DNA from: Lunularia cruciata
Taxonomy: Eukaryota; Streptophyta; Marchantiopsida; Lunulariales; Lunulariaceae
Reading direction: 5' to 3'
Length of the DNA: 64,000 nucleotides
Assembly (NCBI GenBank): GCA_948567375.1
Contig: OX419757.1
Span: forward strand, 10,492,974-10,556,973
Shown here: positions 23,491 to 58,018 of the stretch, one piece after another
Numbering within the stretch: the first letter of the stretch is position 1
How the letters are laid out: each line of letters opens with the position of its first letter
Position numbers and translations under genes: made by a program
Notes under the pieces: model-generated
Databases searched by the model: none
What the model was told of the DNA's origin: nothing
What the model saw: the letters and a program-made list of their open reading frames with translations, nothing else

Positions 23491-26062
23491 CTAATCCGAT
23501 CCAATGTCTACTTCTTCCTCGGCTTTCAAACCCAAACCCGAAGTAATTTTACTTCCTACTATCTTTTCCTCGGGTTTCATAACTCCTACTTCTTCTACCA
23601 GATCCAACAATTCTCTTTCTTGATTTGAAATTGCACTAGTGGGTAATCTATCTAACTCTTCATCCTTCGACCCACTCTTCTCTAATGTCTCTGAGGGCAA
23701 CTCCGAAGACATTTGGATTCCTATGTTATCTACTTTGGGTTTTGCCTTAACATCCTGCCGAAGCTTTTCTAACTCTATTCTCACTAAGTCTAATCTAATT
23801 GAAATATTTTCTTCTACTTCTAAGATCTTCCTATCTACACGAGTTCTGAGACTAATCAACAAGGCGTTCAAATCTGTATCTTTCGCTTGTCTTCGCCTTG
23901 TCTCTTGCACCAACAACTTCAACTCGTGCAGTTGTGTTTCTTCAATCCGAACGCTAGCTTCTGTACTTAACATCGCGTTCACTCTTAGGACTATTTCCTT
24001 CAATGGCTCCAATCTTGTCTTTTGTTCTCATTCCCGATCTGCAAGCCATTCCTCTTGATACATTGCCAACTCTTCTTCAAATTTGGCCTTCACCGCTTCC
24101 TTCTCTTTCTCCTTCTGTATGATTTTCTCTTCTTGATTACGAAGTAATTCTCGTAATCTCTCTTCTTCTCTATACCGCACAGACAACTCTCTTTGCCAGA
24201 GTTGCTTCTTCTCCTCCATACTCTCCGTCACTCGATCGAGCTCTTGATCCTTTGATGCTACCCTCGCCATAGCATGGATAAGCTCTACTCTTGAATCAGC
24301 AAACTGCTACTTCAAGATTTTTTGCTCCGCTACCTATCTCTCCCTTGCAATGTCACTCTTCCTCGCAAGATCCTCTCGTTAACTCACTTCTCTCTTCAGG
24401 TCTTTGATTACCTGACTTCTCTCTACTGCTTCCGCTTGCAGTACTTCTCTCTCGTCCTCACCCCGAGTTATACTCTTCTTCAACTCCGAGTTTTCTTCTT
24501 CTAATCTTGATAAGACCTGCAAAAGAGTCTTTACCTCTGGACAAGTAGACTGCATCTCCTTCTTCTTCTTCTCCAACTTCACCAACAGCGAGTATACTAC
24601 CTTCTGCAGGTAATCTACTCCATTACTGGCAACTTTTTCCTCCGCGGAGTGGTCTCTCTTCTTTCTTCGTGTTCTCTTGATACTCGCTTTCTTCTCTGGA
24701 GTCTTCATATCGGAATTGACGCCTCATTGCCCGAGCTTTCTTCTATCTCTTCCTTCACTCTACTTGGCCCCGCTTCACACTTCGCCTTACGTCTCGAGCA
24801 AACTCCTCGCTGTACTGCGATCTTCTTCTCCTCAAGCACCGGTACTTCGTCTTCCAGCGCCGCATTGTCTTTGGCTTCTACTTTGGCTTGCACTTCTTCT
24901 TCGTATTCTTCAGCCGCTGGTGTCGAGGTCATTTCTCCACCATCTTCATTGTCAGTGCTAGTATTTCCACTCTGCAGTGTCAGCTCAGGTTCCTCCTCAC
25001 GTTCCGAGTCCTCCATCTTGAGCTCGGCTTTGCCTTCTGAGTCTTCATCTTCTGACTCAATCACCACCATTCCTCCCCTCGGGTTATTTTTCTGCATCTT
25101 ACGAGGTTTCTTGTTTTCTTTGGCTTCTGCTTGCCGAGTTCTCTTCTTCGTCGGGGTACTTACAATGACCTCCATGTTTTTCCCTGTCTTTGCATAGTAA
25201 TCATCCGTGCTCCGGATTTGGAGAATGCATTGTTGCTCCTCCGCGTCGACTTCTCTTCTCAAGTCAGGATGGAAATGAGACACCATTCTATTGCGCTCCG
25301 CCAAATTGAGCAAATTCAACCCGAGGTAGAAATGTGCTGCAAATGGTACGATGTAGTGTGGAGGCGACTTATCCTGCAGATTCCACACCATCTGCCTTGT
25401 TCTCCCGTGAAAGCACCTTGCCCAATTGATCGGTTCTCCTGCAAATAACTTGTGAAAGAACACCACTTGGTGTTTCATCACATAGGTAGTTCTCTCTGGC
25501 TTCAGGATGGCCATTAGTGCACTCACAATTCCTCTCCTCACAAGGTCTTTGTAGCTCTCAACTTTGTACCCATTCTTTGTCCTCTTCGACGAGAAGGCAT
25601 CTCTCACCTCCTATGTTTCTTGGGCTATCTCTCCTTTCCCCAAGAACGTGGCTCCCTGCTCCGAACCCGCCTCCTTCCCAAGTACGAGTCTCCAATCTGA
25701 CTCTGTCTAGAGAGCCGGATTTCCTCTCTTCCCTTCTTCCTCGGGACCATCGAGACATTTACTCTCAATGATTTCTATCATGAATCCTGGAAAACTTACA
25801 TTCTAGTTCCATGCCAAAAAAGTGATCCAAAGTCGGCTCAAGACTTCGATCCTCGCTACAATTCTAATCTCCAAATTGCATGATTTCTCACTGCAAATTT
25901 GGAGTTCTTCTTCCCTCCTCCCATCTCTTCTGCTTTCTTACTGTCTCTCAATTTCTCTCTCGTGACTTCTCCCTTGCGCACTTACATGAGTCCAATTCTA
26001 TTTCCCTTTCCCCGATCACCTGCAAGAAGACTCCTCAACAGCGAAGGAAAATTGCTTGACAT
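23491..26062 (-). pseudogene. LTR-embedded ORF (LORF), element I 5' LTR copy
   Basis: Partner of the copy at 13565-16117, with the same domain order. The conserved-block part is open from about 25607 to 24705, and the coiled coil is open in the next frame from 24708 to 24379. A frameshift near 24705 and stops near 24375, 24275 and 24015 separate the rest. The stop at the ETxEVxDAFSS site is shared with the 3' LTR copy and was therefore present before insertion, whereas two 3'-copy stops are absent here. So the two LTR copies decayed partly independently. In the proviral arrangement this copy lies upstream of gag, but in U3 of the 5' LTR it is not part of the genomic RNA. Confidence 0.85.
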
Positions 26063-26475
26063 TTCGTCGTTGCAGTTTCAATTTTTATAGAGTTGCACTT
26101 CTTCGTCTTCCGACACATCGAGTTTCTATTGAGAAATCACACTTCCGGCATGCACCTGTCACTATCAATCAACCTTTGCGCGTATGAGCCGCCAGTTTTG
26201 AAACGGCCCTTTCTTGAATTTCTCGCCCTGACAAAAGGTTGTTAGACTGTCTTTGCCTCGGGTTGAGCTCCCCCCAATCCAAAGACAATTTACTTCATAT
26301 TGTATGCTGACACGGCATTTCCGAGTACTTCATCTTATGACCCGAAGTCACTTTACTTTGGGTTTCATCTCAAAGACAATTTTCTTTGCCTTCTTCGGCC
26401 ATACAGGCGCAATCTGACTTCTCTATACACTACTTCTCCTTTATTTTGAAAAAAACAAAAAATGTGGGCACCACA

Positions 26476-37500: not shown

Positions 37501-37983
37501 TCTTTGTCTTTGGGTTTTAGATTTCCTCCTTCTCCAGCCTTTCTTTGGGATGCTTTAGGATACTTACTAGAGTGCCGGTGGTCTAAACCCAAGGTACTTT
37601 GAGATTACCCACCTTGGCTTGTATGAGATCCTCTACTTTGGATCAGATGTCTACCAGAAAAATTGAGGCTTAGTCTTTGGTCCTCCTTCAACCTCATTTC
37701 TCCAAGTCTGTTGTATTGCCTCTTGTATCTCTTTTTGCAAGGCTTTGGCTTTAGCTTTAGCCAAAATCTTCATCTCCTTTAGAGATAAAATTGCTTTAGG
37801 CCAAAGTCACTTTGCCTTTTTGGAAGATGAAGAAGTGGTACCTACTTATTCAAGATCATGCTTCTTCTTCCAAGAGCGTGTTTCAACTCGCAATACTTCA
37901 AGATCTGGCCATTCTATTTTTGGAGCTGGACTTCCTCCTTGAGGTCTCTCTTCTTCCAAAGTTATACAATTGATAGTGGCCTC
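37501..37983 (-). pseudogene. Element IVb gag-protease linker, right of E insertion
   Basis: Lysine/alanine-rich sequence equivalent to element I 20200-20690, ending where element E starts. Joined with 48013 onward it rebuilds an unbroken alignment to element I (CNCITLEEERPQ region). Confidence 0.75.
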
Positions 37984-38090
37984 TGTCGTGCATATATACA
38001 TTGCTACACAACATACATTGTTGTCAACATCATACACTATAGAAGCACAACTCACACATAAGTCATACATAGACTCTAAAGTGCCACAAT
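37984..38090. repeat. 107-bp repeat X, outer copy
   Basis: It differs from the copy at 38540-38646 at four positions. It lies between the target site and the 38090-38537 LTR copy. It is absent beside the LTR at 47565-48012. Confidence 0.95.
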
Positions 38091-38537
38091 AATCAGATTG
38101 CTTACCACTCTCAACTCAACTCAACTCAGATCAGTACTTGATCTGTCACTCTATAAACTGTCAACAACTGGGCACTGATTACAATCAAGCCACACCCACT
38201 CAAGCATAGAGAATCCAGGTGACGCTCGCCGGCCTCTGTCCACCATAGCCAAGAACTCGAAGGATCAACATCAAAGAAGTGAGCTCTCTAGAGCTCACTT
38301 CAAAACTATACCCCTGGACTCGAGCTAGCTCTGAAACCCTAATGGTCCCATTGACGGCACACTCGACGGTGCAAACGGTGCAAAGTGACAGTGGGCCCCA
38401 CCATGAAGTCAGTAGCCTGAACACGAAATCTAACCGTCGGAAAGTAGTCTATGAGAAACTACTAGAATAACTCTAACTACTATCATAGGAACTCCAGTGT
38501 ACGAGCATCTAGATGCGGAACTACAAATGGCATGATA
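38090..38537 (-). mobile_element. Element E 3' LTR copy
   Basis: It matches 47565-48012 throughout, with scattered substitutions. It is flanked on both sides by the 107-bp repeat X, so the original LTR may have been longer (X plus this segment). A hairpin at 38276-38301 is conserved in both LTR copies. Confidence 0.85.
38276..38301. repeat. Hairpin in element E LTR
   Basis: 12-base perfect arms with a 2-base loop (GAAGTGAGCTCT and its complement). The equivalent at 47753-47778 retains the arms with one mismatch. Confidence 0.85.
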
Positions 38538-38539
38538 GT

Positions 38540-38646
38540 TGTCGTGCGTATATACATTGCTACACAACAAACATCGCTGTCAACATCATACACTATAGAA
38601 GCACAACTCACACATAAGTCATACATAGACTCTAAAGTGCCACAAT
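38540..38646. repeat. 107-bp repeat X, inner copy
   Basis: Second copy of the repeat at 37984-38090. On the minus strand it is preceded by a purine run (AGCTAGGGGG, 38648-38657) that could be the polypurine tract, with X then forming the start of the 3' LTR. Confidence 0.95.
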
Positions 38647-38812
38647 CACCCCCTAGCTGGCGATTAGGTCTCTCTAACTCCAAATAGCCGTCTACTCTAA
38701 GTATATAATATACCCTCTAATGGGCAAAGATCAGGAGGCCGGGTGCTATGGAGCCCCATCGTTAGTCCCTTGTCTGCAATCTATACCATATAAAGAATGA
38801 ACTAGCTATAGG

Positions 38813-39112
38813 TCAAGTACATCTAGGACATAACCACTGTCCTTGAGAAACCACCGTGAGGGGAGGAGTCATATATGCCATATGCCATCCTCTTGAACAG
38901 CCATCACACACTAACATAGTAGCAGCTCCACCAGAAGAGCCACATAACATACACCTCAAGCCTGCACGTACAAGTGCCAAGCTTGGGTCCATAGTACCAT
39001 CAATGTTTGGAAGGTGGCATGGCGCACAATTGCACACATGATCCTTCCAAACAACACCATCACGTCCTTCTAACACAAGGACTCCAGATGGCAAAACCTC
39101 GCGCACTCTCAA
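38813..39112 (-). pseudogene. PHD finger at the integrase C-terminus of element E
   Basis: An open frame of 99 codons ends with a zinc-binding Cys4-His-Cys3 pattern (38953-38819): CMLC, then CDGC after twelve residues, WH four residues later, and WLCPRC before the stop. The fifth cysteine, expected three residues after the histidine, is tyrosine (a TGT-to-TAT type change), so this copy is probably impaired. Upstream, LRVREVLPSGVLVLEGRDG fits the integrase C-terminal strand region, so the finger was part of the integrase polypeptide, where chromoviruses carry a chromodomain. PHD fingers usually bind the histone H3 tail; a role in choosing integration sites is inferred. Confidence 0.85.
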
Positions 39113-40486
39113 GATAGTGCGGCCTGTAGAAACATCAAGTGTTGTCGGTGCTGTCTGCTATAGATATACATAGTCGCCTGGATGAAATTGACAGATCGAG
39201 GGTCTATAACCTCCTCCTCGAATGGTAGCATAGTGTAAAGTATCTCTATGCTGAGCAATTGCCAAGTTCTCAAAGGCCATTGGCATCACTCTCCAAAAGA
39301 TCTCTGCCCGTTAAGAACATGCGCTCATCCATACATCGGGGTCATCCAAGTCCAAAACTATAGTAGCATCTTGACGAATGGCTGCAGGTAAATCTGGATC
39401 TCATCTATAGAGTAGAAAGTATGGAGAGAAGGATGCTAAGGAGGCTTGCCAGCTGAACCTATAGCCCATGGCCAACCAAGGTAACTAGAGACCCCAAGCT
39501 CCTAAGTGGCCTCTCTGCAAACCATACTTTCGCAATCCTCTCTTCACCGTCTGAACCACTCTCTCTGCTAATCCATCTGCCTCAGGGTGATCTCGGGATG
39601 TAGTACAATGATCAATCAAAGCCTTGTCACACAAGACCTGAAACTCCCCCAAGAACTCTGTACCCTGATCAGTCAAAACCTTAGCTGGTGCACCAAAATG
39701 ACTAAGAACTTGATCTAGGAACGAGTAAGCTGTCCTTTCACTAGACTTGTCAGGAACTGCCACCAACTCAATCCACTTGGAGAAGTGCTCCACCATCACC
39801 AAAACATACCAATGATGTCTCACAGTCAACAGTAAAGGTCCGGTGAAGTCCAAACTCCAATGGTAACCCAATCCCATGATAGGTAATGGGTGAAACTGTG
39901 GCGTAGGAGCATTGAATGATGCTCTAACTTGGTCACAAACCACACATCTGGCAACAAACTGCTGTACCTCGGTCTGCATACCACGCCACCAATAATGACT
40001 GTGAAGTAAGCTATTTGTATGCTTTACTCCAAAATGTCCTAGGTCCTCATGAGCATGACGGACCAACTGTGGTCTCTGAGATGGAAGTGGTACTACTTGC
40101 ACTCTACCATCCTCCCATACATGCAAAAGGTGTCTACCCTCCAATCTGAACCGTCTGGCTCGCTGAAGAACATGGTCTCTCTCCTTGGCCTCAACTGTGC
40201 CACCCACAACACCAGTGCGAAGATAGTCCATCACTAAGACATCATCATGAATGTCTTGCTGAACTATACCAATATCTTCACTCTCTGGATCTGTGACCTC
40301 AATAACTCCTCCTGTATGAGCTGAGAGAGAAACCACCAAAGCCTCTGCAAATATACCCAGAAAGGCTGATGCATGCCAACTTGGCACCATCTCCTCATCT
40401 GTCTCCCCATGCCAACATGCTCCGGTCTGATCCTGCTGGTTGGGACATGGGTTTCTACTCAACCCATCTGCATCACGGTTCACCAC
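39113..40486 (-). pseudogene. Element E integrase
   Basis: 333 open codons (40486-39485) hold the zinc-binding HHCC region (HEDLGHFGVKH, CVVCDQ), catalytic aspartates in SLDFTGPLLL and LTDQGTEFLG and the glutamate in DGLAERVVQ. The downstream part (39484-39113) continues with PYFLLYR and GDYVYL blocks but has stops near 39410 and 39165 and one more near 39310. The catalytic triad is intact, unlike elements I and IVa. It would insert element DNA into the genome, with the PHD finger attached. Confidence 0.92.
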
Positions 40487-41812
40487 TCCAGGTCTATGAA
40501 CAACCGTGAAATCATACTCCTATAAAATCAGAGCCCATTGTGCAAGCTTCCCTGAAAGCTTGTTGGACTCCATCAACCACTTCAGCGGCTGATGATCAGT
40601 GATGAGAGTGAAGGGGTTACCAAATAGGTAACATCAGAAATGTGCTACTGCCCAAACTGCTGCCAAGCACTCTCCCTCATATGAACTATACTTCGCCTCC
40701 GCTGAATTGTTGGAGCAACTAGCATAGGCCACTACAAACTCCTCTCCTCATCATCATGCTAGGTGAGCTCCAAGCCCCAACATACTCCAATCAGTGTGAA
40801 CCTAAAATGGTTGTCCCTTGATTGGTCTCCTCAAAATAGGAGCAAATGTCAACCTCTCCTTGAGCTCTACAAAAGCTCTCTCCTGCTCATCTCCCCAACA
40901 CCACTTTTGTGTAAGCTTGGTCAGCTTTGTCAAGGCCTTGGCAATGGTACTAAATCCTCTAACATAGCGGCGATAGAAGTTTACCAACCCAAGGAATGCT
41001 TGCACTCTGCTCACATCCGTAGGCCGAGGAATATGTGCAATAGCCTCCACCTTGGTCTGCTGGACACCAAGTCCTCCGGGGTAGATAGTGTGACCCAAAT
41101 ACTCAACCTGCTTGTGGAAGAACCTACACTTCCCAAGATGTAATTTGAGTCCATGAGATCTCAACCTCTCAAACACCTCCAAAAATTGTCTCTCATGCTC
41201 CTCCACAGTAGTGCTGTAAACCAAAATGTCATCAATGTAGCACCAAGCAAAATCTAATCCAACTAGGATCCTATCCATGACCCTCTGGAACTCAGCAGGA
41301 GCATTCTTCAACCCAAATGGTAAGAACCTCCATTGATATAACACATCCTTACCGTGAGGATCAATAGCCCAAAATGTTGTCTTGGACTTATCCTCCTCCT
41401 TGATTGGCAATTGATGATATCCCGCTCAAAGATCCAAAGTATTGAAGATCTTTGCATGCCCAATCGCATCAAAAATCTCCTCCGGTGTAGGCATGGCATA
41501 CCAATCAGCCCTTGTCTGTCGGTTGATAGGACAGTAATCTCCACACATCCGCCTATCTGTATAGTTGCCATGCATATCCTTCTTGGCTGGCATCACTGTC
41601 GCTAATGCATACTCTCCATGTGAAATCTCCACCAAACCAGCCTCAAAAACGTCACTACTCCGGCTCTGAATCAATGTCCTCTCCATATCACTATATTGAT
41701 AAGGACGTTGGAAAACTAGTGTGTTGCTAGTCATCTCAGTCCGTATACCAGGTCCTTTTAGAGCACCCAAATCCTTCATACTGAAGGCAAAACAACTCGT
41801 GTGACTCCTCAA
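40487..41812 (-). pseudogene. Element E reverse transcriptase and RNase H
   Basis: RT: MCGDYCPINRQTRADWYAMP, LDLxAGYHQLPI, FLPFGLKNAPAEFQRVMDR and the catalytic YIDD in WCYIDDILVYS. Thumb/connection: HTIYPGGLGVQ, FLGLVNFYRRYVRGF. RNase H: EGECLAAVWAV, LITDHQPLKWLM and HRPGVVNRDADGLSRNP, running into the integrase. Stops: near 41429 (before AGYHQL), 40801, within 40760-40730, and near 40522. Typical gypsy pol sequence, but clearly separate from the I/IV lineage in detail. Confidence 0.93.
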
Positions 41813-41990
41813 GAACCTCCAAGATCTCCGTCTTTCCTCTCCAATAAGCTTGGGTCCAAGATCTGGCTCCCAAGTATCCTCTGTAATTGTAGTAGGAGTG
41901 GAAGACGTACTGACTGATTGCTACACTAGGCCCTTGGGAGCAATAGTGTCATGCTCCCGACCACTAGAGGTCCCAACCTTTGTGTGAAAA

Positions 41991-42282
41991 ACTCCCTCCA
42001 CTCTGGCTGCAAGCTCCACACGTCCTCTAGCTGCCTCCCATATGGACCAAGGGTGTAATCCAAGTAGCCCACACTCACCTGGATGGACTCCAAGTAGACT
42101 TCTCTCCCTAGTAGCTACTGGATGTGTCCCAAGAATACTCCCTCCACTCTGGCTGCAAGCTCCACACGTCCTCTAGCTGCATCCCATGTGGACCAAGGGT
42201 GTAATCCAAGTAGCCTACGCTCACCTGGATGGACACCAAGTAGACCACTCTCCCTAGTAGCTACTGGATGTGTCCCAAGAAT
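41991..42282. repeat. Two-copy tandem repeat of 146 bp in element E
   Basis: 41991-42136 and 42137-42282 are near-identical head-to-tail copies. The period is not a multiple of three, so the duplication shifts the reading frame between methyltransferase and RT. Confidence 0.93.
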
Positions 42283-42384
42283 ACCATGTCCACTCGGTCC
42301 ATCGGCCCCCGCATGTGCCTGAATCGTCTTGATAGGCACAAGGCTCACAAGTGTCCGAGTGGTGATGCCTATCAAGCGCATCCT

Positions 42385-43478
42385 ACGCTGCTCTGCCAAG
42401 CCAAGGCTCACAATCCAGGTCAAACAATTCAGGTCCATAGCCTGACCTAACACCTGACCCCTGGATGCCCTAACACTATTGGAATAGCGGTAATACCGGT
42501 GCAAAAACCCATCGCCCGCTCTCTCTCATCAGCATTGAGCTCCACCAACTGCTGTAATTGTGAGTTCCAAACAAGTCTAGGTCCTCCCTCTTGAAAAGCA
42601 TGAGAGGTTGGGAAACTCATGAGTGTGGGAAATGCAGCTCTAGGCTGTCCAACTAGGTTCACCACTGCCATAAGTGACCTATCAGCCACTACCACTGTCT
42701 GAGACTGATGCCCAACATCCAAGATATCATCAACAAGAATGTGGTCCAGTCGCTGAATCCCATCATAAGCACGCTGTAGAACCTCTCTGGGTAAGAGGTT
42801 TGTCCACCAAAGACAAAGATGATGAGCCCGTGATCCCACTCTGGCTGCATCTAACAATACAGCAAGTCCCATCCAAGAATGGACTTGATGTGTACTCACC
42901 GCCACTTTGGTGTGAGAATCACCCATCAAAGGAATGTTCTCCAAAAGGTAAGCTGGAGAAACAGACTGATGAACCTGTAGATGTTGTAATATCCATAACA
43001 TCTCCCAAAACACACCAAAATGAGGATCCTGAAGACCCAAACCGTGGCCTGCACGTGTATGTCCCTAACGTGGCCATCCAGAAATCACCAAGTGAATAGG
43101 CCTATGTCTCTCTAGGTCATGTGCCCCCAGTAAGGAAATGTCTCCTGGTAGGGCCTTCTGGTAACCTCTTACTGCTGACATCGGTAATAACTCCGGATAC
43201 CAATAAGCCAAGTGTGCCACATGATGTAGAGAGACTTGCCTAGCAGTCTCATCTCTCTCTACATACAAGTACCTCTGTACTCGGATACTCGCCTGTAACA
43301 CCGCAGCTAGTCCGGTGCTGATCCCACCAAACAACTCCAATAGGCATATCCCCTCTACTGGATATTGCCAAGCAATGAGTGTGGTATCTAGAGGTGTCAA
43401 AGCAATTGCCTCTGGAGGCTCATCCTCACACTCATCCCTTGATGGTACAAAGGCTCCACTCCAAGCCTGCTGCACCAA
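42385..43478 (-). pseudogene. Cytosine-5 DNA methyltransferase in element E (DNMT3/DRM-like)
   Basis: One frame runs from 43478 to 42447 with a single stop. Motifs in order: I, LLELFGGISTGLAAVL (near 43343), the AdoMet-binding loop; II, YLYVERDETARQVSL; III, LPGDI; IV, SGWP followed by Arg-stop-Gly at 43070-43065, where the catalytic Pro-Cys-Gln is expected; VI, LLENIPLMGD (42941); VIII, GSRAHHLCLWWTNL (42833), like the SAAHRARYFWGN of DNMT3; X, LNADERERAMGF (near 42527), then after a small frameshift LGQAMDLNCLTWI. About 330 residues, the size of a catalytic domain. Motif order I to X is linear, not rearranged as in DRM, so DNMT3-type is the better comparison. It would methylate cytosine C5 with AdoMet. 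It lies between protease and RT and belongs to the element, not the host. Confidence 0.88.
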
Positions 43479-43479
43479 C

Positions 43480-44435
43480 TGATCTGCATGCTACTGCAAT
43501 GCCTCTTTTGAACTCCACAATGAAACATCCAAGGTGGATAGAACAATCCCACTTGTACTCCAAAGCCGAGTGATCTCCTCTGGTACTGGAGTATCCTCTG
43601 CATGGGCGTTCCCCTCCACAAGTCACAGGCCAAGTAATTGCACCACTGAAAGCTAAAACTGATGCTGCCATGGTCTCGGACTGTAGTGAGCCAAGACTAC
43701 CACTACTAAAGCATACTGGTAGGCGACATACCTGTCCCTCACTAGACTGCCAACCAGGACTATAAGAGGTTGTCTCCTCCCAATAGTCAATGCTGAAACC
43801 CATGGGGTATAACACTGCTCCCCCAACTAGCACATCATATGACTCAGCTATCGTCGCAATAGCCTGAGCTCTCACCACCAAGCTATCAGTCGGATGACCA
43901 GGCTGAACCTGGACAACAAGCTCCCCACGTGTGATGTACTATGTCGAACCACCACCTAGAGATGTCTGGATTTGAAATGGACACCTCTCTACATCGGTCT
44001 TTCGTACTCCAGACCGACAACTGCAGCCTTCCCCAACAGAAGGGGTTGCACACCAGAGTCTAACAAGACTCTCTGTGGTGTATAGACCTTCCCTGAAGGT
44101 CCCACCAAACAAAAAATACCCCTCTAGTTATCCAATAGGACAACACTAGGTGTAAACCGCGCTCTCTCAAAGGCCGGTCTAGCTAGCAACTCCTCCAATC
44201 TAGCCGCAGCTACCTGCCATAAACCACTGGTCGCTGAACGGATCCCATGCTCCTCAACCAAGTCAGCTCCACTACCAACCACCTCTACTCTAGCAGTACA
44301 AACTGCACCATCCCTACTCTCACACAACATGGCAGCCAACCGGAACATTGGGGCTGGGTCAACTCCCAATGTAAACATGTCACTAGCTGAAAACAAAGGA
44401 TGCCGCATAATCAGCTGAGCCGCCCCCAACATCAT
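43480..44435 (-). pseudogene. Element E protease
   Basis: The active site RVLLDSGVQPLLLG (Asp-Ser-Gly at 44052-44060) identifies a retropepsin. Downstream, in another frame, VLVGGAVLYPMGFSIDYW and SYSPGWQSSEG form the expected C-terminal core. The active-site frame is the same as that of the methyltransferase, but the C-terminal core is shifted, so at least two frameshifts, or a stretch read in another phase, lie between 43880 and 43480. Upstream, 44435-44124 is open with no recognised fold. Confidence 0.8.
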
Positions 44436-46246
44436 GCTAGACTCAGTCTATGTAGTAGCAGGTGGCTAACTAGCAGGTAGTCCATCATGTACTCCATCAC
44501 CACCTACCACACCTACATTGGGACGTCTAGGAACCATGGATGTCGTCTGTAATGCCTCAGATAGTGTGAAAGACTAGGGAAGTCTGACCTGTCTCCCAAC
44601 CTCTCCTCTCTGTGGGTCCAACTCCATTGATGCTCCTCTAGGCTCTGGAGCACGTACTGCACTCCTAGTCATTGTTGCAGATGCATCCACCTATGCTGCT
44701 CCGCACATGAAGTCCAAAGCATCTCTATCACCAGCATATGAGGTGGAAGCCTCAGCACCAGAATCTGATCTCCTCCGAGCAATAGCCATACTAGCCAATC
44801 TCTGCTCCAACTGCTCAATCCGAGTAGCCATAGCTGTGTCAGAAGTAAGGGCAGTTATTGCACCCCTACTGGGTGTAGATCCTCTACCACCACCTCTACC
44901 ACCTCATCCTCCATGAACTGGAGCTCCTCTACTACCTGCCATAGCAGCCCTACCACTCCGTAACTCCGGGTGTAGGTCAAAACACCGGTCACTAGTGTGA
45001 CCAAATCTGTGGCAGTGCTCACATTGCCTTTGTGCTGGCTATGATGCACCTGAGGTATCAGGTCCACTGCCTTAAGTACACTCTCTCCGATGGTGAGGTC
45101 CACCACAAGTCCAACAAGCAACACCACCACTCACTGGCTGTTGTTGACTCAAAAATGAAGGTAAGGGTCTAACTCCACTAGGCCCTCCACTCGCTCTATA
45201 GGATCTGGGCTGTCCACCCTGTCCTCAAAAACCAACTGGGCGTGGTGCACTCTGCTGCACTCTAGAAGAAGTCACAGCCGTGGATGAGGTCTCCCTACCA
45301 AATCCAGATGTCACCACTCTCTCCTCCACCATGTTGAGCTCAATACGCTTAGCCAAACCAAAGACTACTACCAAAGTGGGCAAAGTAGCCTGCAACAACG
45401 TAGCATCACGAACTCTACGTCGTAACTCCTTGTCCAGTATCCCATACCAAAACTGGACTGCCTGGGCCTTAGTAACTCCCTGAGTGAAACTGATCAGCCG
45501 CATCATGCGAGTGTATGCCTCGTGTAGGCTCTCTCTAGCCTTCCGCTGGAACTCCTACAAGCTCCTCAGCCTGTCAGTCCGCACTCCTTGGTAGTTTTGC
45601 CTCAAACACAGGAAGAACTCCACCATGGGGTTAAATCCTGGTACCACACCACCTCCTGCAGCGGTACCTCCACTGGTAGTAGCACTATCTCTAGCTAGTG
45701 CACCTCCACTAGCTCCACCCACACTACTCGAGCTAGAACTCGTAGGTACAGCCGATCTACTCCTGGCTACCGAGCCTAAAGTAATGGAGACATAGTGTGG
45801 AGACCAATATTGTCTCCATAACTCAATCTCCTCCAAATGAGCTCCCCTGAACTCATGGTAGTCATCCATCGGCGGACCCTCCAAGTGCTGAAGCAACCCC
45901 ACCATGCCATGAAGGGTGTGAACAAAGTTGGGTTCTGCATTTGCTGCAGATCACACCAACTATCAAACTCCTGGATGACGTCATCCAACTCAATGGTACC
46001 CAATGTTCCAGAGCAATGCCTAGGGTCTTAGGAGGCCCCATAAATCTTGTTCATGTCCCATAACAACGGTGCGGACACACCAAGTGCACTCTTGACTGAA
46101 TCAGCTCCGGTGTCGAACTCCAACTCAAAGTCAATCTCCTCCCTCACTGGGACCTGAGATACAAGTTGATACCAAGCACCACTCCGAGTAAACCCACTGC
46201 GTACTGCAGGGCTAACTCCTCTGGAATCTCCAAATAACTCCATCAT
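44436..46246 (-). pseudogene. Element E gag
   Basis: The start at ATG 46246 (MMELFGDSRG) is the first methionine of the best coding stretch. LDDVIQEFDSWCDLQ is followed by a low-complexity Ser/Gly/Ala segment, FLCLRQNYQGVRTDRL, and a gag core with SLHEAYTRMMRLISF and AVQFWYGILDKELRRRV. Zinc knuckle CEHCHRFGHTSDRC at 44982-45023, preceded by a second, CWTCGGPHHRREC, with shorter spacing. Then a coiled segment (RIEQLEQRLASM). Stops and frameshifts break it about every 80-120 codons. Gag would package the RNA. Confidence 0.85.
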
Positions 46247-47564
46247 GACAAAGTAACCACAACAGCAAACCCGAACCACCAACTACAACCGCAAGTCGCA
46301 ACCGCAAGTGCCCCACCAAGTGCCAACACCACCAAGTGCGAATACCAACTAAGCACCACCCACTAATGTAACTCTAACCGAGATAACTACAGTAAGGGAC
46401 GGGCAACCTGTAACCTGCCATCATAACACGCACTCTCATGGTCTGCAGGTCATCACTTCTTGCCTCACCGGAGAGAAACAAAGGTAGTCTAACTGGTCAT
46501 CACTCCAACCTCACCACTAAGAGCACACTAGAGTACCAATGCTCAAAAGTCAAGGCACCTCACACAAACTTGGTGCACAAACAGGAAGCAAAGAATGGAA
46601 GGGATCCAATCACAAGAAATCTAAACAAAAAACCTCCATCTCATAACACAACACGGGATTGACTCTACCACCATTTGGCATTTGACATAAGAGAAGTTTG
46701 TATCTAAGTCCTAAGTTACCAGGATCACCAAGAATGGGATCAAACTACCTCTCCTAGCCAAAGCTACATGTGTATAGATAACAGTGGCACAATCACTAGG
46801 ACAACAAGTGAAGGTGGACCAGTTAGCTAGGGCACCAGTCTAGGAACAAGAGATCTAGGGGTCAAACTCTGTTGCGCACAATCTAGCAAGAAAGGCAGAT
46901 TTTGCCAACCAATGATCAAGATCTACTCTAAACTAGCTAGCCTCACGCCAGCAAGTTGGCTTGCTGGCCCTTCTAGGCCTTCGTAGCCTCTCATAGCCCA
47001 CAGCTCTATGCCTTGAAGCCTCTAAATGCCAAAATTCACCCAAATGAGGCCTTTCTTGTTGCCACTTCGAACCTCCTCCAAAATTGGCAAAACTTCTCCA
47101 AATCTGCAAAACTCCTCCAAATCTGGCCAAAATCTGACATGAATCTCAACCAAAATCTGACGTAAATCCTAAAGATGGCTGTCTGCCAAATCCCCCGCTA
47201 ACTTTCCACTTGAGCTAAATTGACAACAAGGGTTTTTCCAAATCACAAATTCATGAGAAGAGCTTCCCAACTCCACCTTCAATTTGACTTTTTGAGCCCA
47301 ACTCGTAGCAAATTGGTCCTACCTTCACCTCCTAAGCTCAAAATCACAACCACTACTCGAAATTTGCTCCTTCTTTGCTCAAAATTTGGCCAGCGCTTCC
47401 GCACACCATCCGTCTAACTGCCAAATCTGCATCAAGTGAACGAGCTTCTGCACACTAGGGAAACACTGAACTTGAATTGAGCTACCAACAATCCACCGAG
47501 CTTAGAGATACCACCAACACTCAAAGTTCCTACACCCGATTTCCCCCTGACTTCACTTCTCTGA
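46247..47564. other. Element E untranslated leader
   Basis: 1.3 kb between the 5' LTR and gag with no convincing frame. The start after the LTR (minus-strand TCAGAGAAGTGAAG) has only a weak match to the initiator tRNA-Met primer site. 46380-46600 has a diverged relative at 58070-58290. Confidence 0.55.
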
Positions 47565-48012
47565 TGTAATCAGATTGCTTACCACTCTCAACTCAACTCA
47601 ACTCAAATTAGAACTTGATCTGTCACTCTATAAACTGCCAACAATTGAGGACTGATTACAGTCAAGCCACACTCACTCAAGCATAGAGAATCCAGGTGAC
47701 GCTCGCCGGCCTCTGTTCACCATAGCCAGGAACTCAAAGGCTCAACATCAGAGAAGTGAGCTCTTTGGAGCTCACTTCAAAACTATACCCCTTGGACTCA
47801 AGCTAGCTTTGAAACCCTAACGGTCCCACTGACGGCACACTCGACGATGCAAACGGTGCAAAGTGATAATGGGCCCCATGAAGTCAGTACCCTGAACACG
47901 AAATCTAACCGTCGGAAAGTAGTCTCTGAGAAACTGCTAGAATAACTCTAACTACTATCATTGGAACTCTAGTGTCTAAGCATCTAGATGCGGAACTACA
48001 AATGGCGTGACA
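47565..48012 (-). mobile_element. Element E 5' LTR
   Basis: 448 bp with TGTCACGCC and CTGATTACA as element-sense termini; it abuts IVb gag at 48013. Match to 38090-38537 includes the AACTCAACTCAACTCA repeat and the hairpin (47753-47778). No copy of repeat X adjoins it. Confidence 0.88.
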
Positions 48013-49900
48013 CCTTTCCTTTGGACTGCAATGTAGTGCACTTAGTAGGAGTCTATAGGTATTTCACAAGAGGCTTTGGGTTGTGTGGTTGAGGGCACTG
48101 ACTTCCAACATGGCCCAAACCTTTACAATTTCCACAAAGTGGAACATACCCAATCTGTTGCCTTGGCTCAAGACAATTTGAAGACCAATGGCCCATAGAG
48201 CGACAATTGTAACATGCTCATGGTGCAACATTTTGAGCCCTATTTTGGGTGCCCATTGGTGGTCTTTATTGAGGAGCATTATTCTTATACTCTATTGGTC
48301 CATACCTTGGACCTTGGTATGGTGTGCTTGCTTGAGGTTGTACCTCTTATGTTTGGTACATTGCCTCTTCTTCCTCATTTTGGTCCCAACCTAGGACCCA
48401 ATCAATCTGCTGCACTAAAAATTGCAATTTGAAGTAAACACTCCATGTTGGCATGATCTGACTTGCCACATGCAGTGCACCATACATTTGGTCTTCCAAA
48501 TGAAGGGGAGTTTCTTTGGTGCTTTGTCCCAATCATTTGGATTTTAAAATCCACAAATTCCTAATCAAATTCTCTAGCTTATTGTCCATTTTATTTATAG
48601 GTTTTGCTAGAGAGGTCAATGCTTCCTTTCCTTTGCATCTTCACATTCTCCTTGGCTTAACATCTTCTTTGGATTCTAAAGAAGAATTGGATGACATAGA
48701 GGATTCCTTTGAAGAAGGGGAGGTACTACAAGAAGCTCTTTGTTTGGGCTTCTTGCCTTTCTTCTCCTAATTTCTTCAGTTACCGGACAAATGAGAGTGG
48801 GCCACTTTGTATCCGGCAACATGTTTGAGCACCTTGTCCAAGGAAGTGACATTCCTTTCCCTGGCAAACTTGCAAATCTCTGGTGACAATCCACCAAGGA
48901 ACCAAGTGATGACTTGGGCATCAGACTAACCCACTTCACCATATTGCTTTAGCTTTTGGTATAATAAGGCCATGAACTGCTCAAAGTAGTCTCTTGACTT
49001 CTCTTTCTTTCCCCGGTCCAAATCATTGAGTGCCGTAAAGACACTTGTATCATAATCAACTTCCCAGAATCATTCTAGGAAGTTGTTTTGCAAGTCTGCC
49101 AAGACGGCTAGTTTGAACCCCTTTGGGTCACATGGGTATACCTGCTCCTTGCCTTCTTTTGTAGTAGACTTGGAAAAATCCACAGCCAATCAATAAAATC
49201 ATGTTCCTTATTGGCAAAGGGGATGACTTTAGATCCCTTGATGAATTCATTAGGATCTTCATCTTGTTCCATCTCCTTATACTTTTGGTTTGCATGTTGG
49301 TGATGGGTAACAAACTCATTCTCTAACTTTGAAGAGTAGGTTGTGAAAGTGTAGAACTTGATGGACCCAAGGTACGAGTTGGTGATTGTGCATCTGATTC
49401 AGCCTAGGAGTTTCAATTTACCAAATTCAAAGTTTGGTCTTTTTCAATAGGTTGTTCTTTTATGGGTACGTCAACTTCAACCCAAGTTGGAGAAAGATGC
49501 TCAATATCTTCAGTTTGCTCTATAGGATCCCTTTGAAGTAGTCGAGGAATTTTATGTAAGAGGTATTGACACTCTTTTTCAGTTAGTATTTGTGCTATCT
49601 CTTCACAAATAAATTTCCCTTTATGAAATTGGCTCCCTTGATAGCTTTAGAGGAAGCCAATGTATTGGGTTGCAACAAATATGTTTTTCCACTTGTGCTT
49701 TTCTTCTTCTTGGGATTTGGAAATGCAAAGTAGCCTCACCACCCAATCTCATGTTTCTTTGTTCAAGGTCTTTCAAGGCTTCTTAACTTTGTGAAGAATG
49801 TGTAAATCTAATATCTCCTTCATAGATTCTTCACTTGTGAATTGGCTCTTTTAGCGTTCTTCTTCTTCATGTTGCAAATTTTATGAGCCCTTTCTTCTTG
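48013..49900 (-). pseudogene. Element IVb gag
   Basis: Equivalent to element I gag. Zinc knuckle CYNCRSMGHWSSNC at 48173-48214, and a second intact one (CGNCKGLGHVGSQC) just downstream near 48100-48140, where element I has lost a cysteine. The core has FAKLGGLSPE-like and LNDLDRGKKEK-like blocks on the minus strand near 48900-49060. Frameshifts and stops are frequent. Its end is in 37501-37983, on the other side of element E. Confidence 0.82.
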
Positions 49901-52967: not shown

Positions 52968-55346
52968 GTAGAAACTCAAATTGAAGTGAGACAAAGAAAG
53001 CGCCGACTTTAGATTACGTTCTTGGCATGGAATTGGAATGTTAGTTTTCCAAGTTTCATGACTGAGATCATCGAGATAAAGTGTCTCGATGGCCCCGAGG
53101 AAGAGGGGAAGAGAGGAAATCCGGCTCGCTGGACAGAGTTGGATTGGAGATTAGTACTCGAAAGAGAGGCAAGTGCAAAGCAGAGTGCCACATTCTTGGG
53201 GAAGGAAGAAGTAGCCAAAGAAACCCAAGAAGTGAGGGATGCATTCTCTTCAAAGCGGACAAAGAATGGATACAAGGTTGAGGGTTACAAGGATCCAGTG
53301 AAGAGAGGGATCGTGAGTGCTCTCATGGCCATCCTGAAGCCGGAGAGAACAACGTATGTGATGAAACACCAAGCGGTGTTCTTTCACAAACTGTTTGCAG
53401 GAGAACCAATCAATTGGGCGAGGTGCTTCCATGGAAGGACGTGAAAAATGGTGTGGAATCTGCGGGATAAGTTGCCTCCACATTACATCGTGCCGTTTAC
53501 ATCACACTTTTACCTTGGGTTGAATTTGCTCAACTTGGCAAAGCAAAATCAAATGGTGTCGCATTTCCATCCTGACTTGAGAAGAGAAGTCGACGTAGAG
53601 GAGCAATAGTATATCCTTCAAATCCAAAGCACAAACGAGTACTACAAGAAGACGGGGAAGAACGTGGAGATAGAAGCGAGTACTCCAAAGTCGAAGAAGC
53701 AAAGGTGGCAAGGCAAAGCCAAAGACAAGACAAAACCTTGGAAGACCAGGAGAGGAAACCCAAGGCGAGCATGGTGGTGATCGAGTCAGAAGACGAAGAC
53801 TCGGAAGGTGAAGCCGAGTGCAAGTCCAAAGACTTGGAACGGGAGGAAGAACCAGAGCTAACGCTGCAAAGTGGAGATATGAGTAGCAATAGCGATGAAG
53901 GTGGAGAAATGACATCAGTTCCAGCTGCTGCAGTAGAAGAAGAAGTTCAGGTAGAGCTTGAGCTAGAGGACATCACGAAGTTGGAAGATGAGATACCTGA
54001 GCCCAAGGAGCAGAAGTCTGCGATTCAAAGGGGAGTTCATTCAAGACATAAGACGAAGTGTGAAGCGGGGCCAAGTAAGGCAATGGAAGAAGTGAATGAA
54101 AGCTCGGGAAGTGAGGCATCGATTCTGATACAAAGACTACAGAGACGAAGGCGAGTATCGAGCAAACAAGAAGTGAAAAGAGAGATTGTGACGCAAGAGA
54201 AGGTAGTTGCGAGTGATGGAGTGGAGTACTTGTGGGAGATTGTGTGCCCATTGCTGATGAAGTTGGAGCACAAGAAGAAGGAAATGCAATCGACTTGTCC
54301 AGAAGTGAAGATTGTCTTGCAGGTGTTATCGAGATTAGAAGAAGAGAACTTGGAGTTGAAGAAGATTATAACCCGAGGTGAGGAAGAAAGTGAATTATTG
54401 CAAGTGGAGGCAGTAGTGAAGACTCAAGTAATTGAAGAATTGAAGAGAGAAGTGATGTATTGAGAGGAGCTTGTGAAGAAGAGTGACATAGCGAGGGAGG
54501 GACAAGTAGCAGAGTATGAGATTTTGAAGCAACAATTTGCTGATTCAAGAGTAGAACTTATCCATGCTATGGCGAGGGTAGCAGCAAAGGAACAAGAACT
54601 CAATAGAGTCATGGAGAGCGTAGAAGAGAAGAAGCAACTCTGGCAAAGGGAGTTGGCAGTAAGATATAGGGAAGAAGAGAGATTACGAGAGTTACTTCGT
54701 AATCGGGAAGAGAAGATTGAACAGAAGGAGAAGGAGAAGGAGAAAGAAATGGTGAAAGTCGAGTTTGAAGCGGAGTTGGTGATGTATAGAGAGGATTGGC
54801 TTGCAGATCGGGAGCAAGAAAGAAAGATGCAATTGGAGCCATTGAAGGAGATTGTCCTCAGGATTAATGCAATGTTAAGTACACAGGCCAGCATTCGAAT
54901 TGAAGAAACGAGGCTGCACGAGTTGAAGTTGTTGGTGCAGGAGATAGGCAAAAGACACAGATTTGAATGCCTTGTTGATCAGTCTAAGAACTCGTGTAGA
55001 TAGGAAGATATTAGAGGTAGAAGATAATATTGCAATTAGATTAGACTTAGTGAAATTAGAGATAGACAAACTTTGAAAGGATGTCAGAGCCAAACCCGAA
55101 GTAGACAAAGTAGGACTACATATGACTTCGGAGTTAGCAATAGAGACATTAGAGAAGAGTGGCTTGGGAAGTAAGGAGTTAGATAAGTTACCCACAAGTG
55201 GAATTTCAGATCAAGAGAGAGAATTGCTAGATCTAGTAGGAGAATTAGAAGTTGTGAAACCCGAGGATAGAGTCGTAGGAAGTAAAGTTACTTTGGGTTC
55301 AGGTTTGAAAGCCGAAGAAGAAGTAGACATTGGATTGGATCAGTAA
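52968..55346 (+). pseudogene. LORF, element III, N-terminally deleted
   Basis: The first roughly 110 codons seen in element I are missing. The conserved block is open at 53022-53444 (NPARWTELDWRLVL, GYKVEGYKDPVKRG, INWARCFHGRT). Here the ETQEVRDAFSS site keeps the glutamine codon that is a stop in both element I copies. A frameshift near 53700 is followed by the basic, acidic and first coiled-coil parts (53705-54463), one stop near 54462, a further 176 codons of coiled coil, a frameshift near 54950 and the tail (55122-55346). It is among the better-preserved LORF copies in the window. Confidence 0.85.
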
Positions 55347-55461
55347 CCAATTTGAGATTTGAATAGGCAGATATAAAGAGGTGCATTGTCATTTTGGATC
55401 TATAGGTTTGTAGAGTCATTAGGAAGAGGTGCATTAGGAAGATAACTATCAATTGTTTCAC

Positions 55462-55468
55462 TATTTAA
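55462..55468 (+). promoter_or_regulatory. TATA box of element III 5' LTR
   Basis: TATTTAA in CACTATTTAAGAGTGGCAT, about 650 bases before the LTR end, same context as in element I. Confidence 0.7.
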
Positions 55469-56121
55469 GAGTGGCATTCGTAGTCAGATGTTGTTCAGTG
55501 CTCATTATTTTTAAGAATAGATAAAGCAAAGTGTTGTGAAGCAATGCTCGTCGCTTGAGCTTGATTTTGAGTATCAACTTTGTGTTTGTGTTTGTGAGTG
55601 TTTGGAGAAATTCAAAGTCCAAGTCAGTGTTTTTGTTGGATGTTGGATTCCACAACCTTGATCTTCATTCTGTGTGTTTGATCCTGAGTGAAGTGCAATC
55701 GAAGCAATGTCTTGACAAATCTGAGAGGAATTGTAGTGTTGGTAGTATTTTGCATTTGTGAGTGCAATGCGAAGTTGATGTGAAGCAATTTTGATCGAGG
55801 AAGTTGTGCCTTCAGTGGAGGGGTGGAACACAATTCTGAGGCGAAGTTGTTTTGCAATGAAGTGCCATTTTTGGGAGAGCCTGAATCATCCCAAACAAGA
55901 TTGGAGTTGTGATTAAGGAGTGTGAATTCGTGACAGAACTGCGAGTTAGTGCTTGTTACTCTCTTTTGGGTGTGGTTTCTACCTGAGAGACTAAAGAACA
56001 ACTCAAGAAGAACTACATGTTACTGATTGACTTTGTATTTGACCAATTTTGACTCGTATCTGTGCGGGAGCAAACTTTACTTACCGCAAAAGTGATATTT
56101 GCTGAGTTGTCACATGATTTT

Positions 56122-56138
56122 TGGCACCACTACAAGGA
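56122..56138 (+). other. Element III primer-binding site (tRNA-Asp type)
   Basis: TGGCACCACTACAAGGA, seven bases after the LTR end, is a decayed form of TGGCGCCGCTGCCGGGGA; one base is missing. Confidence 0.85.
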
Positions 56139-56197
56139 TACAAATCTCGGAAGTGGAAGAATACAAAGCCAAATTTGAAAGTGGGTATCAACACAAT

Positions 56198-56771
56198 ATG
56201 AATGTATGCATCAAGAGAACAACGGGAAGAGAGAGCTTGAAGACGACACTACAGCGTGAAGAAGATGAACGTCTGAACGTCCTATCCACTGTTGATGAAA
56301 CCGAACGAGAGGCGTTGGACTTTCAACTTCTTCATGAAGTGCAGGAAGCCCTGCGAGAACTTGACCACAAGAAACATGAAGGCGGTTGGCAAGGCTACTT
56401 CGCATCTCCCTCTTCGTCCAAGAAGAAGAAAGACTCGAGTGGCCAAACATATGCATTGTGGCCCAGTACACCGACTTCCCCTAGAGCTGTAAAGGAAGTC
56501 ATGTCCTTAAAGAATTTTGTTTGAGATAAGACATCACAAACACTTACGGCAGAAGAGTGTCAACATCTTCTACGAACGATTCCTCGGTTGTCTCAAAGGA
56601 ATTTTGAAGAACAAATTGGAGGTGTTGATCCTGAATCTTCCACTCGGGTTGAAGTCAACACCCTCATAGCAGAAATTGTTGAAGAAGACCCCACCTTGAA
56701 TTTGACAAATTGGAACCCTTGGGCTGACAACACGGCGTCAATACCAGCCAATGGCTTGGTATGCAAAGTTC
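56198..56771 (+). pseudogene. Element III gag fragment
   Basis: Starts with ATG at 56198 (MNVCIKRTTGRESL), 84 bases after the LTR. It matches the gag N-terminus of element I and is better preserved: 109 codons open to one stop near 56522, then TLTAEECQHLLRTIPRLSQR and DPTLNLTNWNPWADNTAS. It ends abruptly at the deletion junction, where LTR sequence follows. No zinc knuckle or later gag domain. Confidence 0.88.
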
Positions 56772-58018
56772 GGGTTGAAGAAACGAGGCTGCACGAGTTG
56801 AAGTTGTTGGTGCAGGAGACAAGGCCAAGACAGGCAAAAGATATAGATTTGAATGCCTTGTTCATCAATCTAAGAACTCGTGTAGATAGGAAGATATTAG
56901 AGGTAGAAGATAATATTGCAATTAGATTAGACTTAGTGAAATTAGACATAGACAAACTTTGGAAGGATGTCAGAGCCAAACCCGAAGTAGACAAAGTAGG
57001 AGTACAGATGACTTTGGAGTTAGCAATAGAGACATTAGAGAAGAGTGGGTCGAGAAATAAGGAGTTAGATAAGTTACCCACTAGTGGAATTTCAAATCAA
57101 GAGAGAGAATTGTTGGATCTGGTAGAAGAATTAGAAGTTGTGAAACCTGAGATAGAGTAGTAGGAAGTAAAGTTACTTCGAGTTTGAAAGCCGAAGAAGA
57201 AGTAGACATCGGATCGGATCAGTAACCAATTTGAGATTTGAATAGGCAAATATGAAGAGGTGCATCGTCATTTTGGATCTGTAGGTTTGTAGAGTCATTA
57301 GGAAGAGGTGCATTAGGAAGATAACTTTCAATTGTTTCACTATTTAAGAGTGGCATTTGTAGTCAGATATTGTTTAGTGCTCATTATTTTTGAGAACAGA
57401 TAAAGCAAAGTGTTGTGAAGCAGTGCTCATTGCTTGAGCTTGATTTCGAGTATCAACTTTGTGTTTGTATTTGTGAGTGTTTGGAGAAATTCAAAGTGCA
57501 AGTTAGTGTGTTTGTTGGATGTTGGATTCCACAACCTTGATCTTCATTTAGTGTGTTTGATCCTAAGTGAAGGGCAATCAAAGCAATGCCTTGATAGATT
57601 TGAGAGGAATTGTAGTGTTGGTAGTATTCTGCATTTGTGAGTGCAATGCAAAGTTGATGTGAAGCAATTTTGATCGAGGAAGTTGTGCCTTCAGTGGAGG
57701 GGTGGAACACAATTTTGAGGCAAAGTCGTTTTGCAGTGAAGTGTCATTTTTGGGAGAGCCTGAATCATCCTAATCAAGATTGTTCAAAAAGATTTGATGG
57801 AGTTGTGATTAAGGAGTGTGAATTTGTGACAAGACTGCGAGTCAGTGCTTGTTACTCTCTTTTGGGTGTGGCTTCTACCTGAGAGACTAAAGAAGAACTC
57901 AAGAAGAACTACATCTTACTGATTGACTTCGTATTTGACCAATTTTGACTCATATCTCTGCGGGAATGAACTTTACTTACCCGATTACCGCAAAAGTGAT
58001 ATTTGCCAAGTTGTCACA
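56772..58018 (+). mobile_element. Element III 3' LTR, 5'-truncated
   Basis: Matches 54890-56114 of the 5' LTR: LORF coiled-coil end, TATA box (57341-57347), R/U5 and terminus. The U3 start and the polypurine tract are lost in the deletion. Confidence 0.9.

What the first reader, a model, noticed from the sequence alone, without database searches (positions are those of the whole stretch)
42385..43478. Gypsy retrotransposon carrying its own cytosine-5 DNA methyltransferase
Between protease and reverse transcriptase of element E, a frame with methyltransferase motifs I, II, III, VI, VIII and X in linear order is seen. Its closest comparison is the DNMT3 type. Plant gypsy lineages do not normally encode one. 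From memory, capture of methyltransferases by retrotransposons was reported for dinoflagellates and charophyte algae (de Mendoza and colleagues, 2018); a vascular-plant-like genome with this arrangement would widen that picture. An element that methylates its own new DNA could hide from or exploit host silencing; that purpose is inference.
Basis: partly seen in the sequence, partly recalled or inferred. Interest (0 to 1): 0.93.

Follow-up and report, generated by a model that had tools for sequence, protein, structure and literature searches.

The report
Retrotransposon family carrying its own methylase
This is a decayed copy of an abundant bryophyte-type mobile element that carries its own DNA-methylating enzyme and whose end repeats are shuffled in a way that suggests it inserts from a circular DNA form.

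Summary
Element E lies on the minus strand (37984-48012) and encodes a DNMT3-type cytosine-5 methyltransferase between protease and reverse transcriptase. This copy is dead: Arg at the catalytic Cys position, then TAG, then a frameshift. It is no one-off capture: 22 further copies in the window's 566-Mb genome were checked and probably over 100 exist. Relatives occur in Marchantia, Calypogeia, Riccia and Sphagnum and, more distantly, in Closterium and metagenomes, some fused to RT or to a PHD finger. DNMT3-carrying Gypsy elements are published for the alga Klebsormidium (de Mendoza 2018), so the kind is known; my searches found no report of them in land plants. The bigger surprise is the anatomy: repeats run A1-body-B1-A2-B2 (DIRS-like), yet there are a DDE integrase, TG...CA ends and 4-bp target duplications. 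A self-priming site abuts A1, so standard linear cDNA would end where A ends; proviruses end 107 bp later, in B2. The B1-A2 joint is, in most copies, a palindrome of abutted ends, like the foamy-virus circle junction that integrase cuts. I infer integration from circular cDNA. DNMT lies on the Gag side of a conserved leaky-type TAG. Its function, methylating new cDNA, is inferred.

The parts
47567..48012 (-). Repeat A1, the 5' end of the element; starts TG
48013..48016 (-). 5' flank AAGG, likely half of a 4-bp target duplication (3 of 4 bases match the 3' side)
47746..47759 (-). 14-nt stretch inside A1 complementary to the priming site
47553..47566 (-). Priming site abutting A1, complementary to the stretch inside A1 (self-priming)
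44450..46054 (-). Gag region, broken; inner border approximate
   Evidence: tblastn with Marchantia relatives
44030..44070 (-). Protease active-site motif (LLDSG), approximate
   Evidence: motif read by eye
42447..43490 (-). DNMT3-type methyltransferase frame with one internal TAG
43065..43070 (-). Motif IV lesion: Arg at the catalytic Cys position, next codon TAG
42295..42465 (-). C-terminal part of the DNMT region, in another frame
41921..41923 (-). TAG between ORF1 (Gag-PR-DNMT) and ORF2; followed by CAATCA
40802..41920 (-). Reverse transcriptase (two ORFs, one stop between)
39485..40519 (-). Integrase, zinc-binding and rve core (H2C2 2.2e-16, rve 6.4e-15)
38813..39157 (-). Integrase C-terminus with PHD finger (PF00628 2e-9)
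38540..38646 (-). Repeat B1, preceded by a short G-rich purine run
38538..38539 (-). 2-bp spacer between B1 and A2 (GC in 22 of 28 other copies, AC here)
38090..38537 (-). Repeat A2
37984..38090 (-). Repeat B2, the 3' end of the element; ends CA
37980..37983 (-). 3' flank GAGG

Best explanation
SHOWN: E is an old, broken member of a high-copy Gypsy-type family. ORF1 encodes Gag-protease-DNMT3. After a conserved TAG comes ORF2: RT-RNase H-DDE integrase-PHD. The repeats are A1-body-B1-A2-B2, with TG...CA outer ends, 4-bp target duplications and a priming site complementary to the element's own A repeat. INFERRED: reverse transcription is self-primed, as in Tf1/sushi, and makes linear cDNA whose LTR is B-A. 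The ends are joined into a circle, and integrase cuts the palindromic B|A joint (CA-GC-TG) and inserts the permuted molecule, placing one B at the far end. INFERRED: TAG readthrough makes DNMT at Gag level, so it is packaged and methylates the new cDNA before or soon after integration. The PHD finger would help choose chromatin. INFERRED: the host is a bryophyte, probably a liverwort.
For: DNMT identity. Linkage: RT, RNase H and PF00145 in one Marchantia protein (P0078); of 78 relatives 11 carry RT, 11 carry PHD and 3 carry both with RNase H, integrase and PF00145 (precomputed domains). ORF order seen in 6 of 6 copies read. Boundary TAG in 18 of 18 copies and the window; CAR-YYA context in 17 of 18 and the window. 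Repeats: both ends seen in 12 of 18 copies, in each A1 / B1-A2-B2; 33 further A loci are 14 A1, 16 B1-A2-B2 and 3 solo A-B. Target duplication perfect in 11 of 12, in 2 of 2 further end pairs and 3 of 3 solos, all read by eye. Self-priming match of at least 14 nt in 23 of 29 A1 loci including the window. Purifying selection: pN/pS 0.39 in 55 pairs without stops. PFV integrase cuts the palindromic LTR-LTR junction after CA, leaving 2-nt 5' AT ends (PMC1180852, passages).
Against: A two-LTR circle has two B|A joints; cutting the other would give A-B-A-body-B, and none of 29 A1 loci shows it, so a strong unexplained bias is needed. In the window itself, and in copies with a changed spacer, the joint is no longer a perfect palindrome. 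The purine run before B1 is short and broken by C. Seven bases of the priming site (ATCAGAG) would also pair with initiator tRNA (recalled). Copy e05 has no matching target duplication and 45 differences between A1 and A2; it may join ends of nested copies, as its flank holds other DNMT sequence. Copy e10 lacks the CAR-YYA context. No circular DNA was seen. Enzyme activity is untested; in yeast the Klebsormidium Gypsy DNMT gave no detectable methylation, called inconclusive by its authors. PN/pS of 0.39 is only moderate and pairs are not independent. A1/A2 decay is enriched at CG and CHG, which host enzymes alone would also give.
Confidence: 0.7

Rival explanations
1. A host DNMT3 gene fragment was captured once, by this copy only.
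For: The window copy alone, of 23 examined, has Arg at the catalytic position.
Against: 22 other copies in the genome carry the same DNMT (123 PF00145 matches, not all inspected); fusions to protease, RT or integrase-PHD occur in Marchantia, Sphagnum and Calypogeia proteins. A host DNMT3 exon is 28% identical to the relative used as query and the gene is intron-split.
Confidence: 0.01
2. The A-B-A-B pattern is an assembly error or a local duplication in an ordinary LTR element.
For: Only the 3' end carries the extra repeat.
Against: The same pattern and borders at independent sites with different target duplications.
Confidence: 0.02
3. It is a DIRS/PAT-type element that uses split repeats with a tyrosine recombinase.
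For: The repeat order is that given for DIRS elements (A-coding-B-A-B).
Against: rve integrase, TG...CA ends and 4-bp target duplications; no tyrosine-recombinase family among the hits for the 10 window ORFs and 8 relatives scanned (not every ORF was scanned).
Confidence: 0.04
4. The permuted provirus comes from linear cDNA made by an unusual strand-transfer scheme (transcript running into B2), not from a closed circle.
For: Would explain why only one of two possible permutations is seen, 0 of 29 A1 loci showing the other.
Against: The priming site abuts A, so minus-strand DNA should begin at the A end and exclude B2 (follows from standard reverse transcription).
Confidence: 0.3
5. The DNMT does not act on the element's own cDNA but on competing elements, host DNA or RNA, or serves only as a nucleic-acid binding domain.
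For: Gag-side placement would give high dosage (inference); an antiviral role has been proposed for such domains (PMC6338049, passages).
Against: Catalytic Cys kept in 22 of 23 copies examined, which speaks against mere binding; copies were picked by methylase score, so the sample favours intact motifs.
Confidence: 0.35

Closest known systems
KnitGypsy-Dnmt3 of Klebsormidium nitens (de Mendoza 2018, PMC5890265; section 9 and passages read)
   Same: Gypsy domains, DNMT3-type enzyme in the coding region, repeats in DIRS order, purifying selection
   Different: Reported only in the alga and placed in the Pol ORF; no PHD (word absent), priming site, target duplication or integration route in what I read; sequence kinship not tested (no protein named Klebsormidium)
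SymbioDIRS-Dnmt3 (same paper, passages)
   Same: DNMT3 plus A-body-B-A-B repeats; shown there to methylate CG de novo in yeast
   Different: Tyrosine recombinase, dinoflagellate, described there as unrelated to the Gypsy case
Tf1/sushi and Tcn1 Ty3/gypsy elements
   Same: Self-priming instead of a tRNA site (PMC6317226, passages)
   Different: Ordinary LTRs, no DNMT, chromodomain rather than PHD (recalled)
Foamy virus PFV-1 two-LTR circle junction (PMC1180852, passages)
   Same: Palindromic joint of the two ends, cut by integrase in vitro after CA to leave 2-nt 5' ends
   Different: There the joint exists only in circles; here it is written into the provirus as B1|A2
Orchid Gypsy elements with an AlkB RNA demethylase (PMC9289625, passages)
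   Same: Plant Gypsy with a captured nucleic-acid modifying enzyme
   Different: RNA demethylase, separate ORF, angiosperm

Membership tests
DNMT3 cytosine-5 methyltransferases | Sequence closer to DNMT3 than to other C5 methylases | tested here: met
   Profile: DNMT3A 2.8e-19, next non-DNMT3 chain 3.9e-10, M.HaeIII 1.2e-5
DNMT3 cytosine-5 methyltransferases | Motifs in unrearranged order I to X (unlike DRM) | tested here: met
   model residues 17-329 align to DNMT3A 621-890
DNMT3 cytosine-5 methyltransferases | Catalytic Cys in motif IV | tested here: met
   Family: Cys in 22 of 23 copies; window copy not
DNMT3 cytosine-5 methyltransferases | Methylates DNA | not testable with these tools
   No assay
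Ty3/gypsy retrotransposons | RT-RNase H-integrase order with rve integrase | tested here: met
Ty3/gypsy retrotransposons | RT groups with Ty3/gypsy in a tree | not tested
   No RT tree was built
Ty3/gypsy retrotransposons | TG...CA ends and 4-5 bp target duplication | tested here: met
   11 of 12 copies, 4 bp
Ty3/gypsy retrotransposons | Two identical LTRs flanking the body | tested here: not met
   A1 alone at 5', B1-A2-B2 at 3'
DIRS/PAT elements | A-body-B-A-B split repeats | tested here: met
DIRS/PAT elements | Tyrosine recombinase and no target duplication (the latter recalled) | tested here: not met
   rve integrase, target duplications
KnitGypsy-Dnmt3 | Gypsy Pol with DNMT3 and DIRS-order repeats | tested here: met
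KnitGypsy-Dnmt3 | Common descent of DNMT and RT | not tested
   No protein named Klebsormidium; length limits apply
Self-primed elements (Tf1/sushi, Tcn1) | Priming site complementary to the RNA's own 5' region | tested here: met
   At least 14 nt in 23 of 29 loci; transcript start itself not mapped

The most novel reading that the evidence does not exclude
A retroelement with a retrovirus-type DDE integrase that integrates circular cDNA by cutting a genome-encoded circle junction, giving proviruses with circularly permuted LTRs; it is self-primed, and delivers a DNMT3 enzyme at Gag dosage by stop-codon readthrough so that the new DNA is methylated before silencing systems read it.
Probability: 0.45. 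Interest if true: 0.92.

Novelty: new variant of a known kind. Interest (0 to 1): 0.82.

Why it matters
It moves methylase-carrying Gypsy elements from one alga into land plants; [quoted passage not shown] Marchantia, a tractable model, carries them in annotated genes, although a 2018 methylome paper counts five DNA methyltransferases there (PMC5784723, passage). More broadly, proviruses with split repeats and DDE integrase signatures make an old question testable: can integrase use circular DNA as a true integration substrate?

Tried and rejected
Rejected: capture in a single copy; assembly error; tyrosine-recombinase element; an ordinary tRNA priming site (the site does not begin with TGG; the self-complement explains it better). 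A fold of the window's B1|A2 joint as single-stranded DNA is no better than shuffles (z 0.36). Viral contigs gave no relative. tRNA and Rfam scans of the window gave nothing. A weak penicillin-amidase hit below its Pfam cut-off was taken as chance. The structure searches list many DNMT3 chains; a family not listed there is not excluded.

Left open: whether DNMT-less copies exist; kinship with KnitGypsy; the host's name; the RT's place in a Ty3/gypsy tree; a DNMT tree with more outgroups (one search has only two host rows, one of them 26% filled, and several long branches flagged by the program). Of the 41 matches, the window, one partial reverse match and six in copies already fetched were left out of the 33 classified.

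Full report
1. What is there. The reported segment is real but on the minus strand. The + strand frame is full of stops. On the minus strand 43490-42447 is one frame broken by a single TAG. It contains LFGGISTGL (motif I), GWPR-stop-GH where relatives have GWPCQGH (motif IV), LENIP (VI), GSRAH (VIII) and a NADERERAMGF stretch near the C-terminus; motif names are recalled. The copy is dead as a methylase. The rest of the element is readable around it: Gag, protease motif, RT, RNase H, integrase and a PHD finger.

3. It is a family, not an accident. The window is C6:10492974-10556973 of a 566-Mb genome in 74 contigs. There, 123 PF00145 matches were scored out of 2161 candidates. The four best are host genes (intron-split DNMT3 in L001 and L004, DRM order in L002, a CMT/MET-like fragment in L003; labels by eye). 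Twenty-two others were inspected and all carry the element's DNMT (18 chosen copies and L005-L008). The remaining 97 were not inspected, but most cover the same profile stretch. A search with the window's RT scored 150 matches of 40,419 candidates, all 91-100% identical over essentially the full length. Fourteen RT matches pair with a listed DNMT match at nearly constant spacing (1547-1646 on the + strand, 1941-1956 on the minus strand, equal once match ends are allowed for). If the two lists were independent samples this would mean roughly 1,300 copies; both lists are best-first, so take it as order of magnitude only. In other genomes the fusion recurs: Marchantia Mp_2g26090 (P0078) holds DNMT, RT and RNase H; Mp_7g09570 (P0080) holds part of the DNMT, integrase sequence by eye and a PHD finger; P0127, P0144 and P0150 carry RT, RNase H, integrase, PF00145 and PHD in one frame. 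Of the 78 proteins, 11 carry RT and 11 PHD.

4. State of the copies. Of 23 DNMT frames examined (18 chosen copies, L005-L008, window) the catalytic Cys is kept in 22 and 12 have no stop; the sample was picked by methylase score, which favours intact ones. pN/pS is 0.44 over 136 pairs of the chosen copies, 0.39 over 55 pairs without stops, 0.33 over the 33 stop-free pairs with dS above 0.05, and 0.57 for the window against 12 stop-free frames; two sequences were dropped for frameshifts. That fits purifying selection diluted by post-insertion decay. Between A1 and A2 of one copy 3-12 of about 447 bases differ in 11 copies, 45 in e05, 32 of 443 in the window, so the window copy is old. In 13 such pairs there are 139 transitions and 27 transversions; transitions fall on CG and CHG sites about 5 and 4 times as often as on CHH, as expected for methylated DNA. 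This does not say which enzyme methylates.

5. ORF layout. In the six copies read, ORF1 runs Gag-protease-DNMT (the protease pattern was matched in 5 of 6) and ORF2 is RT-RNase H-integrase-PHD in the same frame after one TAG; all six carry some further lesion, ORF1 being undivided at 1428 aa in two and ORF2 at 1037 aa in one. The TAG is at the same place in 18 of 18 copies and in the window; the next six bases fit CAR-YYA in 17 of 18 and in the window. UAG-CAR-YYA is the tobacco-mosaic type of leaky stop (recalled). So DNMT would be made at Gag level rather than at Pol level.

6. The repeats. Of 18 copies fetched, both ends were seen in 12, and in each the order is A1-body-B1-A2-B2; three more show B1-A2-B2 with A1 missing or cut off by the stretch, two A1 only, one B1 only. 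Thirty-three further A loci, found by DNA search with A1, are 14 A1, 16 B1-A2-B2 and 3 solo A-B. The outer ends are TGTCACGCC and ACGCACGACA in most copies. Four-base target duplications are perfect in 11 of 12 copies, in two further end pairs (L069/L078, L077/L096) and in all three solos, read by eye; in the window 3 of 4 bases match. So a DDE integrase most likely acts at these ends. B1 and A2 are joined by GC in 10 of 12 copies and 12 of 16 further loci, which with unmutated ends makes GACAGCTGTC, a perfect palindrome of the two abutted ends; in the window the joint has decayed.

7. Priming. The 14 bases after A1 are the exact complement of a stretch inside A1 in 23 of 29 loci, the window included; the other six differ by about one base (by eye). 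The match begins at the very first base after A1. This is the arrangement of self-primed Tf1/sushi and Tcn1 elements (PMC6317226, passages). It fixes the right end of a standard linear cDNA at the end of A. A short G-rich purine run precedes B1, none precedes A2. A standard reverse-transcription product would thus have LTRs B-A. The provirus is instead cut at the B|A joint and carries B at its far end: a circular permutation.

8. How it would integrate. Foamy-virus integrase cuts the palindromic junction of two-LTR circles just after CA on both strands, leaving two-base 5' ends (PMC1180852, passages); HIV-1 integrase cleaves its own junction palindrome in vitro (PMC1905944, abstract). The B1|A2 joint has the same geometry. 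I therefore propose circularisation and integrase cleavage at this joint. The weak point: a circle holds two such joints and only one of the two products is seen, 0 of 29 A1 loci having the other. The choice must be strongly biased, or the route differs. Closed circles themselves are unproven.

9. What the DNMT does. Inferred: it is carried with Gag and methylates nascent DNA. The Symbiodinium DIRS enzyme methylates CG de novo in yeast, while the Klebsormidium Gypsy enzyme gave an inconclusive negative (passages). Alternatives (action on rivals, host DNA or RNA) are open.

10. Known or new. DNMT3-bearing Gypsy elements with DIRS-order repeats are published for Klebsormidium, the repeat order in one legend sentence. 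A 2025 survey mentions streptophyte and dinoflagellate cases by citing that paper in the passages I saw (PMC12344493). My searches listed no title or abstract reporting such elements in land plants; I opened only a few of the papers, and subscription journals are mostly not held. In a 41-row tree the element DNMTs (39 rows) separate from two host DNMT3 rows; the window sits in a 15-row clade (100/99) with Calypogeia, Marchantia, Sphagnum and four unnamed metagenome rows; Closterium and Monoraphidium fall outside (with long-branch warnings). That it is a bryophyte is inferred from these relatives, and its intron-split DNMT3 genes fit a non-flowering plant, since DNMT3 is reported lost in angiosperms (PMC6453930, passages).

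Noticed in passing
L080, L084, L086, L074, fetched copies e06 and e18: Six fetched ends have an inverted A or B copy close by (within the stretch fetched); whether this exceeds chance in so repeated a family was not tested. It may mean insertion next to kin.
   Followed up: no
window 41988-42279: 146-bp tandem duplication (95% alike) between the DNMT region and the boundary TAG in this copy.
   Followed up: no
window 47753-47778 (inside A1): An inverted repeat with 11-bp arms (GAAGTGAGCTC/GAGCTCACTTC) overlaps the self-priming stretch and could compete with it; one arm base differs in some copies.
   Followed up: partly
window 12774-16530, 22699-26475, 53002-58018: Long direct (94%) and inverted (about 81-86%) repeats of other elements; E sits nested in a gypsy-like element (breakpoints near 37971 and 48048).
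   Followed up: partly
L001 and L004: Two intron-split host DNMT3-type genes (by eye); the host also shows a DRM-order gene (L002).
   Followed up: partly
P0145, P0148, P0130: Relatives (Closterium, metagenomes) with a CCHC knuckle (PF00098) and PF00145 in one protein, suggesting Gag-DNMT linkage outside bryophytes.
   Followed up: no
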